Assembly (NCBI GenBank): GCA_028281025.1
Contig: JANQKR010000003.1
Coordinates: 1-64,000 of the forward strand
Reading direction: 5' to 3'
Length of the DNA: 64,000 nt
Origin: Croceivirga sp.
Lineage (GTDB): Bacteria > Bacteroidota > Bacteroidia > Flavobacteriales > Flavobacteriaceae
In this document: positions 47,871-54,998 of the stretch, one piece after another
Layout: each line of letters opens with the position of its first letter
Position numbering within the stretch: position 1 is the first letter of the stretch
Program-made: the position numbers and the translations under genes
Notes under the pieces: generated by a model
What the model saw: only the letters and a program-made list of their open reading frames with translations
Database searches by the model: none
Told to the model about the DNA's origin: nothing

Positions 47871-49967
47871 ATGAAAAAGCTCATCGTATTCCTGTTATGT
47901 ATTCCCAGTATCCTTTTCCCCAATGACCAAAAAGTTCCTTCCAAAATCAAGGCCGTTACCGTGTATTTAAGCGGCGCCCAAATCACCCGGACCGCAAGCT
48001 GCGCTTTAAAGGAAGGCTCCAACAAGGTAGTATTTACAGGACTTTCCCACAAGATCGATGAAAGTAGCATACAGGTTTCCGGACTTGATGCCGTTTCCAT
48101 CCTTTCCATAGCCTATAACATCAATTATCTGGAGAAGTCGGAAAGTAATCCGCAGGTAAAGGAGTGGGAAGATCGGATCAAAGCGTTGGAACATCAAATC
48201 GCTTTGTTAAAGAATAGAATCCATGGGTTGGAGGAAGAGGAAAAGGTAATTACCACTAATCGAATGGTAAGTACGGACACTCAGGCCTTAAACTTGGAAA
48301 AGGTAAAGGAAATCAGTCAATACTATCGTGAACGTATTACGGCCATTAAGGATGAAGTATTCGAGACCAACCTGGAAATCGATGCATTGAAAATGGAGGT
48401 CAAAATGCTACAAAAACAATTGGCCGAAGCCAATGGCGCCCTTGAAGAAGAACAAGGGGAAATCACCATTAAATTTGATGCGCCAAAGGCCACCAATCTA
48501 ATGATGACCCTAAAGTATATGGTCAATGACGCGGGCTGGGTGCCCAATTATGATATTAAGTCCACCGAATTGAACGCTCCCCTGAGCCTTGCCTATAAGG
48601 CCAACGTTTATCAAAATACAGGACAGGACTGGAACAAGGTCAATGTAGTGCTTTCCACGGGAAATCCGGACTACAACATTAGCAAACCCAAATTGGACGC
48701 CCGTTACCTTAATTTTACCACAGCATATTCCAGAAGGTATTCCCCTTCCCAAAAGAAAAAAGGCTATGCCTTTAATCCCAGTGTGAAAAAAGTAGCGGGT
48801 ACGGTAACCGATGCTTCCGGACAGCCTCTGCCCGGTGTCAATATCGTAATCAAGGGAACCAATAAAGGCACCCAAACCGATTTTGATGGCAATTATAGCC
48901 TCGAAGTGCCCTATGGCCAGGAACTCAGCTTCAGTTATATTGGTATGATCGGTCAGGACATTCCACTGTATTCCTCAATCATTAATTTGAGCATGGAAGA
49001 AGATGCTCAAAGACTGGAGGAAGTGGTGGTCACTGCCTATGGCAGTCAAAGCGGTAATTTGACCGGGGCGGTTTCCTCGATCAATCCTGAACAACTACTC
49101 CAGGGACGGCCGGCGGGAGTGCGAATTAGAGGTGTGGGAAGTCCTTCTTTACGTGGTCCCAAAATACGATATCAGGAACCGGCCCCGCTTTATATCATTG
49201 ACGGTGTTCCCGTGGATGGTTTTGTGGAAGGCGATTTGGATGCCAGTGAAATTCAAAACGTGGATATCTTAAAGGGGAGTGATGCCACCGCCCTATACGG
49301 TAGTCGTGCCGCAACAGGCGTAATCTTGATCACCACTAAAAAAAGTAATACCAAGGAAGGTGCCACCAAAACGGAATTTGTCATTAAAAAGTCCTATTCC
49401 ATTCCCTCCAATAATGACATTACGGCCATTGAGATCAATACCTTTAGGCTTCCAGCGACCTATGAGTATTTTGCCGCTCCGATCATCAATGAAAACGTAT
49501 TCCTAACCGCCAGTTTTACCGATTGGGAAAAGCACCAGCTCCTGCCCGGAGAAGCCAATATTTATTTTGAGGGAACCTATGCTGGAAAGACCGTATTGGA
49601 TCCCTATACCACCAAAAAGGAAATGGTACTTTCCCTGGGAATTGACACCAATATTACCATTACCCGAAAACAGGAACGCAATTTTAAAAGCAAATCGTTT
49701 ACCGGGAACAACCGTATCCTGAACAGGACCTATAACTTGGAAGTTAAGAACAACAAGGGGGTCGCCATTGACTTGAAGTTGGTGGACAGGATTCCCAAAT
49801 CCCAGGACAAGGAAATAAAGGTGGATGATGTGGTCACCAACAACGCGACCTACGAAACAAAAAAGGGCCTGCTGACATGGACCATGAACCTAAAGCCGCT
49901 GGAAAGCAAAACAGAACATTTTTCCTTTCAAGTAAAATATCCTCGGGGAAAATACATTTCACTTTAA
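47871..49967 (+). CDS. MuiA/DUF4139 family protein with inserted CarboxypepD-reg and TonB-receptor plug domains
   Basis: N-terminus VTVYLSGAQITRTASCALKEGSNKVVFTGL and C-terminus (KSYSIPSNN...ATYEYFAAP...YNLEVKN) fit DUF4139. Inserted GTVTDASGQPLPGVNIVIKGTNKGTQTDFDGNYSL and PLYIIDGVPVDG...DILKGSDATALYGSRAATGVILITTKK are SusC-type. Confidence 0.92.
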   Translation: MKKLIVFLLCIPSILFPNDQKVPSKIKAVTVYLSGAQITRTASCALKEGSNKVVFTGLSHKIDESSIQVSGLDAVSILSIAYNINYLEKSESNPQVKEWEDRIKALEHQIALLKNRIHGLEEEEKVITTNRMVSTDTQALNLEKVKEISQYYRERITAIKDEVFETNLEIDALKMEVKMLQKQLAEANGALEEEQGEITIKFDAPKATNLMMTLKYMVNDAGWVPNYDIKSTELNAPLSLAYKANVYQNTGQDWNKVNVVLSTGNPDYNISKPKLDARYLNFTTAYSRRYSPSQKKKGYAFNPSVKKVAGTVTDASGQPLPGVNIVIKGTNKGTQTDFDGNYSLEVPYGQELSFSYIGMIGQDIPLYSSIINLSMEEDAQRLEEVVVTAYGSQSGNLTGAVSSINPEQLLQGRPAGVRIRGVGSPSLRGPKIRYQEPAPLYIIDGVPVDGFVEGDLDASEIQNVDILKGSDATALYGSRAATGVILITTKKSNTKEGATKTEFVIKKSYSIPSNNDITAIEINTFRLPATYEYFAAPIINENVFLTASFTDWEKHQLLPGEANIYFEGTYAGKTVLDPYTTKKEMVLSLGIDTNITITRKQERNFKSKSFTGNNRILNRTYNLEVKNNKGVAIDLKLVDRIPKSQDKEIKVDDVVTNNATYETKKGLLTWTMNLKPLESKTEHFSFQVKYPRGKYISL

Positions 49968-51980: not shown

Positions 51981-53153
51981 CTACTTAAGGTTGTTCAGAA
52001 TAAAATCCAAGGTGGTGTTCGTATTCAATTTTTTGTCAAAAGAAAGGCTTCGATGGGTTATTTTGTGGGCTAGCCCCAATTTACCGAGGTGTTTGATGTT
52101 TTCTAAATCGTCCAGGGAGATTTTTCCCATAAACAGCACATCCATATCCTGTTCCTGTTTGTAACGCTTGTAAATTTTTCTTAGTCCACTAAGGTACAAC
52201 CGGTCTTTTGTGAACCCTCCACCACGATGTGCCCGTAAGGTAATGCTAAAAGCTTCCTCCCTATTGAGTTTGTATTTGTTATGGATTAAATCAAAGGTGT
52301 CCGCAAAACCGTAGCCCTTGATCAAACTATCCGAAGCCATGACCCGATAGGCCAATTCCTTTAAACGCTTCAACGTCAACGCCCCGCCCATGTATTCGCT
52401 CAATACGGCCAAGCCCTCCTGTGATTCCACATTTGTGGGCATGCCGTTGGAAAATATTTTTAGTGGTTGCATTAAGCCATTATACGTAGTGACCAAATGC
52501 ACCCCTATTTCATGATGCGCAAGCGTTAGCAATTGGTTCTTACTGAATTTGGCGTTCTTTTTAATAATAAGGGTCTTTGAGCTGTTGCTCACCATGGCCT
52601 CCGCTGCGATATGGGTCGAAAACCTAATGTTCAATGGAAAATCGTACTGATTCGCAAACTCCAAAAAATAGTCCCTGGCCTCCAAAGGGGTATGGACCTT
52701 TTGCATATCCAGGGATAAGGGCTCATCTTCATAATGAAGTATAAACTGCGCATTCTGCACGTCTTTTTCCGTTGGGGTCCCATAAACACTAAGGGAATTG
52801 TAATAAAAGCTTTTTCCCTTACCAATGGTTTCTATGCATTGGATCATATTGGAGTAATAGTTGATGATTTCCTCATACATTCTCCGAATGGTATCGTCCT
52901 CTATACGCTCCAAGCGCTGCGCAAAGAAGAGACGCTGTAGTTTATAGGGATTGAACTTTACCTTGGGGTAATTAAAATGCGGTTCAATGGCATATTTTGA
53001 TGCGAAAAAACGGTGCTTTTCCTTTTCTACATTAATGGGATTGACATAACTGAGCAACTCGATCTTATGAATCAATCGGTCTAAGTTGCCGTCTATTTCA
53101 AAAACATGGGGAAACTCTTGCTGCAGTTGTTTTTGGTCTTGGGTAGCTAACAT
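51981..53153 (-). CDS. DUF1704 / QEGLA-motif putative zinc metallocarboxypeptidase
   Basis: LTLAHHEIGVHLVTTYNG (HExxxH) and VESQEGLAVLSEYMGG (QEGLA). Confidence 0.92.
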   Translation of the reverse strand: MLATQDQKQLQQEFPHVFEIDGNLDRLIHKIELLSYVNPINVEKEKHRFFASKYAIEPHFNYPKVKFNPYKLQRLFFAQRLERIEDDTIRRMYEEIINYYSNMIQCIETIGKGKSFYYNSLSVYGTPTEKDVQNAQFILHYEDEPLSLDMQKVHTPLEARDYFLEFANQYDFPLNIRFSTHIAAEAMVSNSSKTLIIKKNAKFSKNQLLTLAHHEIGVHLVTTYNGLMQPLKIFSNGMPTNVESQEGLAVLSEYMGGALTLKRLKELAYRVMASDSLIKGYGFADTFDLIHNKYKLNREEAFSITLRAHRGGGFTKDRLYLSGLRKIYKRYKQEQDMDVLFMGKISLDDLENIKHLGKLGLAHKITHRSLSFDKKLNTNTTLDFILNNLK

Positions 53154-53974
53154 GTACTCTTTTCAAACTCAGTGGCCTGCAAAGGTATCAATTCCTGCAA
53201 TTGTTTCTCCACCGTGGCCACAACTTCCGGAAAGATAACGCCCGTGAGCTCATCGCAGTATATTTTGGAAATCTCGGTCGCCAATACCAGGGTATTCGCA
53301 AAGTGTTTTGTGATGTATTTTAAAAAATGGCCATTTCCCTGAAAGGTGTCATTGATTTTTGATGTGGATGTAATACCATAGGGCAGGCTTAGTCCACTAA
53401 GTTTGGCACTCCATGAATCCACGATGGCCCCAAACCGATGGGTATCAATATTGGTCGTTCCCAAATTCCAGACCGGTACTTCCCGCTCCCAACGTTTCCA
53501 ATTGTAACTGTGCATATCAAAGACAATGATCTTAGGGAACAGTGTTTCCAGTTTGGCCACTAAAGCGTGGACCACCTGGTAAAAGCCATCATGTTTTTTA
53601 AGGCTTTTTTGTTTCATTTCGTTGGACAGCGGTACTTTCCAAAGCTGTTTTCCCCAAGCCGTGTCGAAAACCGCGCTTTCCGGAGGTCGATTTAAATCAT
53701 ATTCAAATCTACTGTCCAATCCCGCAATAACTATGGGATGGGATTGGACCATCTGTTTGGTACAGGGGTCTTCCTCATACCAACGTTCATACGTCGTGTG
53801 TAAACAGTTTTCCCAAAGCTCTTTGCGGAACTGATGTCCATCATGCACGGCACCACAGATATAGGGCACATAGCCATCCACCTTTATCGTGAAGGAGTAA
53901 TCCTCCGAAACGGCCTCAAAGGGAATCCGTTGGTTAATTTTTGCAATGATTTCAGGAATGGAAAGCCTATGCAT
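53147..53974 (-). CDS. N-formylglutamate amidohydrolase family protein
   Basis: Start trimmed to ATG 53974; FDMHSYNWKR, VPVWNLGTTNIDTHR and C-terminal LATEISKIYCDELTG fit the family; overlaps both neighbours. Confidence 0.85.
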   Translation of the reverse strand: MHRLSIPEIIAKINQRIPFEAVSEDYSFTIKVDGYVPYICGAVHDGHQFRKELWENCLHTTYERWYEEDPCTKQMVQSHPIVIAGLDSRFEYDLNRPPESAVFDTAWGKQLWKVPLSNEMKQKSLKKHDGFYQVVHALVAKLETLFPKIIVFDMHSYNWKRWEREVPVWNLGTTNIDTHRFGAIVDSWSAKLSGLSLPYGITSTSKINDTFQGNGHFLKYITKHFANTLVLATEISKIYCDELTGVIFPEVVATVEKQLQELIPLQATEFEKSTC

Positions 53975-54998
53975 CCTCCACCTCTTTTCGCAAACGGGAT
54001 CGACGGTCAAAGGCCTGTAGTTTTACGGTGACCTTACTTTCAATGAAATCGATTACCTGGCATTGTATTTTGGTTTTGTATACCTTGTTCATATACGTAA
54101 TCCCACCCGGGGACATCACATTTACTTCGACCAACTTTCCCCCAATAACATCAATTCCCACAAAAAACAATCCGTCCTTGACCAATTTGGGACCGATCTG
54201 TTTGCACAGTGCTTTTTCCTCCTTGCTCATGGAATGTTTGGCCACCGATCCCCCGGCGGAAACATTGGAACGATGATCATCACTTCCAGGTACCCTTCGC
54301 ATGGCCCCAATGGGTTCCCCATTTAATAGGAGTATGCGGACATCCCCTAAATCCGCACCTTCAATATATTCTTGAAGTATAACATAGTTAGAAGTTCCAT
54401 CTGAGTTGGTTACATAAAAATCCAAAAGCGATTTTATATTGCTCATCGCCGATTTTTCAATCAAAATAACCCCCGATCCCCCAAAACCATTTAACGGCTT
54501 CAATATCATTTTATCCGCAGTTGATTCCTTAATCTGCTGGACCAAATATTTTTTGTTTTTGGACACATGGGTCACGGGAATAATATTGCTATGGCTGTCC
54601 CCAAATGCCGCTGTATAGAGCTTATTGTTCGCTTCGCGAAGTCCTTGAAGGGAATTCATGATAAAAACATCGTCCTTTACGGAATCCAAAAAATTGAGCA
54701 TTAAAGGATCCAATGGGGGATTGGCGCGCATGAAAATCACGTCAAAACCTGCCAAGGGCAGCATTTCTTCCCTGATCTTAGCCTGTTTATAAAATGTTTT
54801 TAATGGGGCGGGAACCTTATCCATACGCCCAATAACGGTACAGAAGGCACTGGTAACGCTATTTCGGATGGTGAGATTTGCCGGTGTACAAATGGCCACA
54901 CCGTGCTTACGTTTTACACATTCGTGGATCAGGGCAAGACTTGTATCGTTTTCTGGGTCGATTTCTTCCCAGGGATACATTAAGAAGCAAATATTCAT
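53967..54998 (-). CDS. Glutathione synthetase-like ATP-grasp ligase
   Basis: MILKPLNGFGGSGVILIEK, YIEGADLGDVRILLLNGEPIGAMRRVPG, GIDVIGGKLVEVNVMSPGGI. Confidence 0.93.
   Translation of the reverse strand: MNICFLMYPWEEIDPENDTSLALIHECVKRKHGVAICTPANLTIRNSVTSAFCTVIGRMDKVPAPLKTFYKQAKIREEMLPLAGFDVIFMRANPPLDPLMLNFLDSVKDDVFIMNSLQGLREANNKLYTAAFGDSHSNIIPVTHVSKNKKYLVQQIKESTADKMILKPLNGFGGSGVILIEKSAMSNIKSLLDFYVTNSDGTSNYVILQEYIEGADLGDVRILLLNGEPIGAMRRVPGSDDHRSNVSAGGSVAKHSMSKEEKALCKQIGPKLVKDGLFFVGIDVIGGKLVEVNVMSPGGITYMNKVYKTKIQCQVIDFIESKVTVKLQAFDRRSRLRKEVEDA

What the first reader, a model, noticed from the sequence alone, without database searches (positions are those of the whole stretch)
51981..54998. Coupled DUF1704 metallopeptidase / N-formylglutamate amidohydrolase / ATP-grasp operon
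Seen: three genes overlapping by 7-8 bp on the minus strand. The DUF1704 protein has an HExxxH motif (HHEIGVH) plus the QEGLA motif; the ligase is glutathione-synthetase-like. Established: eukaryotic DUF1704 proteins (MATCAP type) remove C-terminal tyrosine from tubulin, and the opposing tubulin tyrosine ligase is ATP-grasp. Inference: a bacterial ligate-and-trim cycle that adds a residue to a peptide or protein tail and removes it again, or a pathway to a small peptide metabolite with the amidohydrolase deprotecting an N-acyl glutamate-like unit. The annotated flavohemoglobin link for QEGLA proteins does not explain this set.
Basis: partly seen in the sequence, partly recalled or inferred. 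Interest (0 to 1): 0.75.

Follow-up and report, generated by a model that had tools for sequence, protein, structure and literature searches.

The report
Peptide ligase with two metallo-hydrolase partners
A compact set of three bacterial genes, one enzyme that joins amino acids and two zinc-type enzymes that cut them off, stays together across distantly related bacteria and includes a relative of the human enzyme that trims tubulin tails, but what it acts on is still unknown.

Summary
In detail: three minus-strand genes (54998→51981) overlap by 8 and 7 bp and encode a PRK12458-type ATP-grasp ligase, an FGase-family amidohydrolase and a MATCAP/DUF1704 metallopeptidase with an intact HExxxH...QEG site. 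The trio is a real module. It is collinear in 71 of 80 Flavobacteriaceae loci, occurs in Alpha- and Gammaproteobacteria, and FGase and MATCAP are fused in Photobacterium/Vibrio and in one Bacteroidota genome. In 199 Bacteroidota genomes ligase and MATCAP co-occur in 11 (13 and 12 carriers; Fisher 2.5e-15). The host lacks both searched gshA families, so ordinary glutathione synthesis is unlikely. Upstream GltP and aroC are host synteny, not members. Best reading: a writer (ligase) coupled to FGase as its processor or eraser, plus MATCAP, a C-terminal trimmer with a job of its own, acting on acidic peptide or protein ends. The substrate is unproven. Prior description in ATP-grasp surveys I could not read is possible.

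The parts
53967..54998 (-). ATP-grasp ligase, PRK12458/NF009110 subfamily (GSH-S_N + GSH-S_ATP), first gene of the module
   Evidence: D283, E291, N293 (aligned to E. coli GshB D273, E281, N283), R221, R235, R243 invariant in 25 sequences incl. proteobacteria
53147..53974 (-). FGase-family (N-formylglutamate amidohydrolase-like, PF05013) metallo-amidohydrolase; likely start ATG 53974 (mechanical ORF to TTG 54010)
   Evidence: AlphaFold pLDDT 87.1, top PDB matches 2q7s and 2odf, then M14 carboxypeptidases; H56, R101, D105, N107, R108, D165, H167, E246 (numbered from the TTG) invariant in 26 sequences
51981..53153 (-). MATCAP/DUF1704 (PF08014) metallopeptidase, short form 390 aa
   Evidence: HEIGVH (H214, E215, H219) and QEG (E246) invariant in 34 sequences; fold match to human MATCAP 7z5g
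55086..56417 (-). GltP-like dicarboxylate/amino acid symporter; neighbour, judged NOT part of the module
   Evidence: AroC-GltP pair persists in genomes without the module (L120, L124); module occurs without GltP beside it in Aquimarina, Dokdonia and Proteobacteria

Best explanation
A peptide-bond writing and trimming module. The ATP-grasp enzyme uses ATP to add an amino acid (most likely glutamate, or another residue onto a glutamate-type carboxylate) to a peptide or polypeptide end. The FGase-family enzyme, whose fold is close to M14 metallocarboxypeptidases and deacylases, is the ligase's usual partner and processes or removes an acidic or acylated unit. MATCAP is a zinc carboxypeptidase that trims C-terminal residues next to acidic residues and has a substrate of its own, so it survives without the other two. 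Shown: family membership, intact catalytic motifs, conserved operon, fusions, joint loss of ligase and FGase. Inferred: the reactions, their direction, zinc, glutamate specificity. Unknown: whether the substrate is a protein tail or a small peptide.
For: Collinear trio in 71/80 Flavobacteriaceae loci and in Shinella, Sinorhizobium and Roseateles plasmids. Photobacterium has a ligase 60% identical to the window's beside an FGase-MATCAP fusion. Fusions also in L016 and Vibrio. Co-occurrence of ligase and MATCAP in 11 of 199 genomes with 13 and 12 carriers. Gain or loss as a cassette between GltP and DCC/MutS2 (L120). About five joint losses of ligase+FGase with MATCAP kept and selected. Vibrio HDW18 without an adjacent ligase has DMYAYN where ligase-bearing Photobacterium have DIHSYN. 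FGase recurs with other ligases (RLAN-RimK, GCS2) in operons lacking MATCAP. Eukaryotic MATCAP/TMCPs remove C-terminal Y, A, E, G and polyglutamate (PMC10499314).
Against: No substrate, product or phenotype is known. L023 carries MATCAP-long and a ligase with no FGase found in the genome, so ligase-FGase coupling is not absolute. The ligase passes NCBI's PRK05246 glutathione synthase cut-off (280 vs 272). The very high ligase conservation (71-93% within the family) would also fit a small-molecule enzyme. Joint loss could each time be one deletion of two adjacent genes.
Confidence: 0.5

Rival explanations
1. Small-peptide metabolite cycle: the ligase makes a short acidic or N-acylated peptide (an osmolyte, a glutathione analogue or a storage peptide), and FGase and MATCAP hydrolyse it from the two ends.
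For: GSH-S type ligases make small peptides; FGase relatives remove small N-acyl groups; the FGase model also resembles succinylglutamate desuccinylase weakly. Photobacterium damselae ligase (annotated GshB) and adjacent QEGLA gene rise 38- and 27-fold at 1% versus 3% NaCl (PMC10308900).
Against: MATCAP is retained without the ligase in about five lineages and is under purifying selection where tested. No amino-acid or acyl-donor gene is a constant member. Co-induction of ligase and hydrolase at low salt is not what a simple osmolyte would show.
Confidence: 0.32
2. Literal ligate-and-trim cycle: the ATP-grasp adds a residue and MATCAP removes the same residue, like tubulin tyrosine ligase and MATCAP.
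For: Conserved adjacency in three bacterial classes; the MATCAP family reaction reverses an ATP-grasp ligase in eukaryotes; L023 keeps MATCAP and ligase without FGase.
Against: MATCAP repeatedly outlives the ligase with intact active site and low dN/dS; ligase and FGase go together instead. No bacterial substrate was identified.
Confidence: 0.12
3. Ordinary glutathione synthetase that happens to sit beside two hydrolases.
For: NCBI names PRK12458 glutathione synthetase and the window protein passes the PRK05246 cut-off; 1gsa is the best solved relative (E 4.7e-37).
Against: No PF04262 in 16 genomes of the family tree of carriers and PF04107 in only 2 of 16, not in the host: one gene in G131 and one GCS2 of a different operon in G176. 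The E. coli TSPTCIRE segment is MSPGGITY here. Fixed linkage to FGase and MATCAP.
Confidence: 0.05

Closest known systems
Eukaryotic MATCAP/TMCP1-2 (KIAA0895L, KIAA0895) with tubulin tyrosine ligase
   Same: Same Pfam family PF08014, same fold (TM 0.59/0.69), same HExxxH plus E metal site; paired in biology with an ATP-grasp ligase
   Different: About 19% identity; no tubulin; here the genes are one operon with an FGase; ligase is GSH-S/RimK type, not TTL family (PF03133 only E 0.012 in one long-form ligase)
Bacterial RLAN-RimK + GCS2 + FGase operons (L110-L116)
   Same: ATP-grasp and/or GCS2 ligase with an FGase-family partner in Bacteroidota operons
   Different: Those have GCS2, at least once a C39-like protein, and no MATCAP
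QEGLA (TIGR02421) flavohemoglobin expression-modulating protein
   Same: MATCAP-domain protein; Photobacterium and Shinella forms pass the model
   Different: Window protein is below the cut-off (312 vs 338.65) and the name does not describe the ligase/FGase module; stand-alone forms exist (L108, L013)
E. coli glutathione synthetase GshB
   Same: Domain architecture and ATP/Mg residues
   Different: Host lacks gshA of the two families searched; acceptor-side segment differs; forms subfamily PRK12458 with its own fixed partners
Vibrio vulnificus clade-2-specific VV2_1203 (COG3930) and VV2_1204 (glutathione synthetase)
   Same: Same adjacent pair by annotation, listed before as hypothetical (PMC3091676)
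   Different: In the passages read no function or three-gene logic is proposed

Membership tests
MATCAP/DUF1704 (PF08014) | Profile match over full domain | tested here: met
   1.7e-103, positions 1-363/365
MATCAP/DUF1704 (PF08014) | HExxxH and downstream E metal-site motif | tested here: met
   H214, E215, H219, E246 invariant in 34 sequences
MATCAP/DUF1704 (PF08014) | MATCAP fold | tested here: met
   AlphaFold model best match 7z5g, E 6.4e-9
MATCAP/DUF1704 (PF08014) | Metallocarboxypeptidase activity, zinc | not testable with these tools
   Known only for eukaryotic members (PMC10499314)
QEGLA TIGR02421 hypothetical equivalog | Score above curated cut-off 338.65 | tested here: not met
   312 bits
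FGase PF05013 | Profile match above 28.9 bits | tested here: met
   47.1 bits; fold match to 2q7s/2odf
HutG N-formylglutamate deformylase TIGR02017 | Score above 278.75 | tested here: not met
   22.1 bits
Glutathione synthase GshB | Equivalog models | tested here: inconclusive
   PRK05246 280 vs 272 met; TIGR01380 235 vs 299 not met; PRK12458 subfamily 465 vs 408 met
Glutathione synthase GshB | gamma-glutamylcysteine ligase present in genome | tested here: not met
   No PF04107 or PF04262 match in the 99.7% complete host genome; PF08886 not tested
RimK family TIGR00768 | Score above 143.4 | tested here: not met
   89.8 bits
Ligate-and-trim pair (tubulin tyrosine ligase/MATCAP analogue) | Writer and eraser act on the same bond and depend on each other | tested here: inconclusive
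   Adjacency conserved, but MATCAP retained alone after about five losses of the ligase

The most novel reading that the evidence does not exclude
A bacterial counterpart of the tubulin-tail code: an ATP-grasp writer and two unrelated metallo-erasers (MATCAP type, and an M14-like FGase whose model also matches carboxypeptidases such as 4b6z) reversibly modify the acidic C-terminus of a bacterial protein, and modules of this kind are related to the source of the eukaryotic MATCAP enzymes.
Probability: 0.2. Interest if true: 0.85.

Novelty: new variant of a known kind. Interest (0 to 1): 0.55.

Why it matters
The MATCAP family was shown only recently to trim tubulin tails; no bacterial function was found in the literature searched. 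A fixed three-gene context, with gene losses that separate MATCAP from the ligase/FGase pair, makes the bacterial role directly testable. It also suggests that NCBI's 'glutathione synthetase' (PRK12458) and 'flavohemoglobin expression-modulating' names mislead in many genomes.

Tried and rejected
GltP symporter as a substrate importer: rejected, aroC-GltP persists without the module and the module exists without GltP beside it. Rhodanese insert (L017, L020, L059, L075 and others) as a sign of a thiol product: rejected, GltP-rhodanese pairs occur without the module (L121, L122). DCC/MutS2 genes: opposite strand, host synteny. Lost-partner loci as ORF-calling artefacts: L044 was one (antisense ORFs, corrected by tblastn), but eight loci were confirmed by whole-genome search. 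Phage link: only an unverified Pseudomonas phage Y1 record. Internal promoters/terminators: counts not above shuffles, no conclusion. Sinorhizobium locus tags guessed for expression data: no papers. Taking a proteobacterial plasmid locus as centre for a genome survey is not supported, so breadth outside Bacteroidota rests on plasmid records. The 2009 amidoligase survey of Iyer and colleagues (recalled, not read) is not held.

Full report
Observation. The three ORFs lie on the minus strand at 54998-53967 (ATP-grasp, 343 aa), 53974-53147 (FGase; the mechanical ORF starts at a TTG at 54010 but the ATG at 53974 has a GGAGG before it and the methionine is invariant in relatives) and 53153-51981 (MATCAP/DUF1704, 390 aa), with overlaps of 8 and 7 bp. 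Families: PF02951+PF02955 and NF009110/PRK12458 for the ligase, PF05013 for FGase, PF08014 for the metallopeptidase. The best solved relatives by sequence are E. coli glutathione synthetase 1gsa (E 4.7e-37) and human MATCAP. The residues of HExxxH and the QEG glutamate are invariant in 34 Flavobacteriaceae sequences, and the expected ATP-grasp and FGase catalytic residues are invariant too.

Structure. AlphaFold2 models were confident (MATCAP pLDDT 92.6, FGase 87.1). MATCAP matches human apo MATCAP 7z5g first and M32 carboxypeptidases next. FGase matches the two solved N-formylglutamate amidohydrolase-family structures and then M14 carboxypeptidases. Both are thus metallo-hydrolase folds; metal binding itself is inferred.

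Conservation. A survey of 199 Bacteroidota genomes found PF08014 in 12 and the ligase at E<=1e-25 in 13, 11 in common, and in all 11 the genes are adjacent (Fisher exact 2.5e-15). A scan of the GTDB species genomes returned the best 80 of at least 584 relatives, all Flavobacteriaceae or unnamed Bacteroidota close to them. Of the 80, 71 have ligase, FGase and MATCAP in that order on one strand (sometimes with a rhodanese or a 108-aa gene between), one is cut by a contig end (L087), and 8 lack ligase and FGase. Other arrangements: FGase - long MATCAP (about 610 aa) - second ligase type (L019, L021, L022; Shinella L105, Sinorhizobium L104/L127, Roseateles L126); both ligase types around one FGase/MATCAP (L017, L018); FGase-MATCAP fusion (L016; Photobacterium L106, L128; Vibrio L107). 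The Photobacterium ligase is 60% identical to the window's.

Degenerate FGase domain. The extra N-terminal ~230 residues of long MATCAPs match the FGase alignment (hhalign probability 94%, E 1.4e-7, a single pairwise comparison) but have no counterpart of the AIHDGH and DMHS motifs. So MATCAP is usually found next to an FGase, fused to one, or carrying a probable dead one, which suggests that the two proteins work in contact in some lineages. This is inference.

Boundaries. In a Flavobacteriaceae genome without PF08014 (G183, L120) aroC and GltP sit directly next to DCC and MutS2 with no module between, and GltP-rhodanese pairs occur in L121 and L122 without the module. The module is therefore a cassette of ligase, FGase and MATCAP; GltP, aroC, rhodanese, DCC and MutS2 are local neighbours.

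Coupling. Eight loci (Arenibacter x4, Maribacter flavus, Croceivirga radicis, Galbibacter mesophilus, Flagellimonas hadalis) keep MATCAP behind GltP but have neither gene in between; whole-genome searches found no FGase and only distant ATP-grasp proteins. On the MATCAP tree the label needs five changes (quick tree, several forks with only 84-92% SH-aLRT). The HE...H and QEG residues are intact in these proteins, and Arenibacter pairs have dN/dS 0.03-0.06, like pairs that kept the partners (synonymous sites partly saturated). Vibrio HDW18, with no ligase beside its fusion, has DMYAYN in place of DIHSYN (one genome). Together these point to a ligase-FGase pair and a MATCAP with its own task. 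Counter-example: L023 has MATCAP and ligase and no FGase found in its genome. A separate Bacteroidota operon pairs FGase with RLAN-RimK and GCS2 ligases without MATCAP (L110, L114, L115 and shorter forms), again linking FGase to ligases.

Not glutathione. No PF04262 match in 16 genomes and no PF04107 match in the host; G131 and G176 have PF04107 genes, one of those in G176 lying in the RimK-GCS2-FGase operon. PF08886 was not tested. The ligase does pass one NCBI glutathione synthase cut-off and fails another.

Regulation and literature. In Photobacterium damselae the genes annotated GshB (RS17020) and QEGLA (RS17025) rise 38- and 27-fold at 1% versus 3% NaCl (PMC10308900). In Vibrio vulnificus VV2_1203 (COG3930) and VV2_1204 (glutathione synthetase) are listed as clade-2-specific (PMC3091676). 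Eukaryotic family members remove C-terminal Tyr, Ala, Glu or Gly and shorten polyglutamate (PMC10499314). Searches for DUF1704, QEGLA, COG3930 and the three-gene combination found no functional study of a bacterial member, but only open-licence papers are held, and a 2009 survey of amidoligase gene neighbourhoods that may mention this cluster could not be read.

Verdict. New variant of the known ligase-plus-peptidase kind.

Noticed in passing
window 47871-49967: DUF4139/MuiA-like protein with what reads as a carboxypeptidase-regulatory and TonB-plug-like segment inserted (VAGTVTDASGQPLPGVNIVIKGT...EEVVVTAYG); a common neighbour in related loci.
   Followed up: no
L110, L111, L113, L114, L115, L116: A different recurring operon: C39-like protein, RLAN-RimK ATP-grasp, GCS2 ligase and FGase in other Bacteroidota, in full or part.
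   Followed up: partly
L070, L076, L080, L081, L083, L093, L099: One or two secreted 'QVGIGTTNPS...' type proteins sit co-oriented just upstream of the ligase in Dokdonia and related genomes.
   Followed up: no
L108 6953-8230 and L013 7931-9205: Stand-alone MATCAP-domain proteins (424-426 aa) without ligase or FGase nearby, a separate subtype.
   Followed up: partly
L106 4913-5317, L128 3387-3854, L107 5864-6223: A small MaoP/DUF413-like gene lies just upstream of the module or fusion in Vibrionaceae, with a divergent LysR-type regulator.
   Followed up: no
L109 5001-5681: Unverified Pseudomonas phage Y1 record carries a MATCAP-like stretch; possibly bacterial contamination.
   Followed up: no
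L105, L126: In Shinella and Roseateles the module is beside photolyase, YbaN and DUF2934 genes, which may hint at a stress regulon.
   Followed up: no
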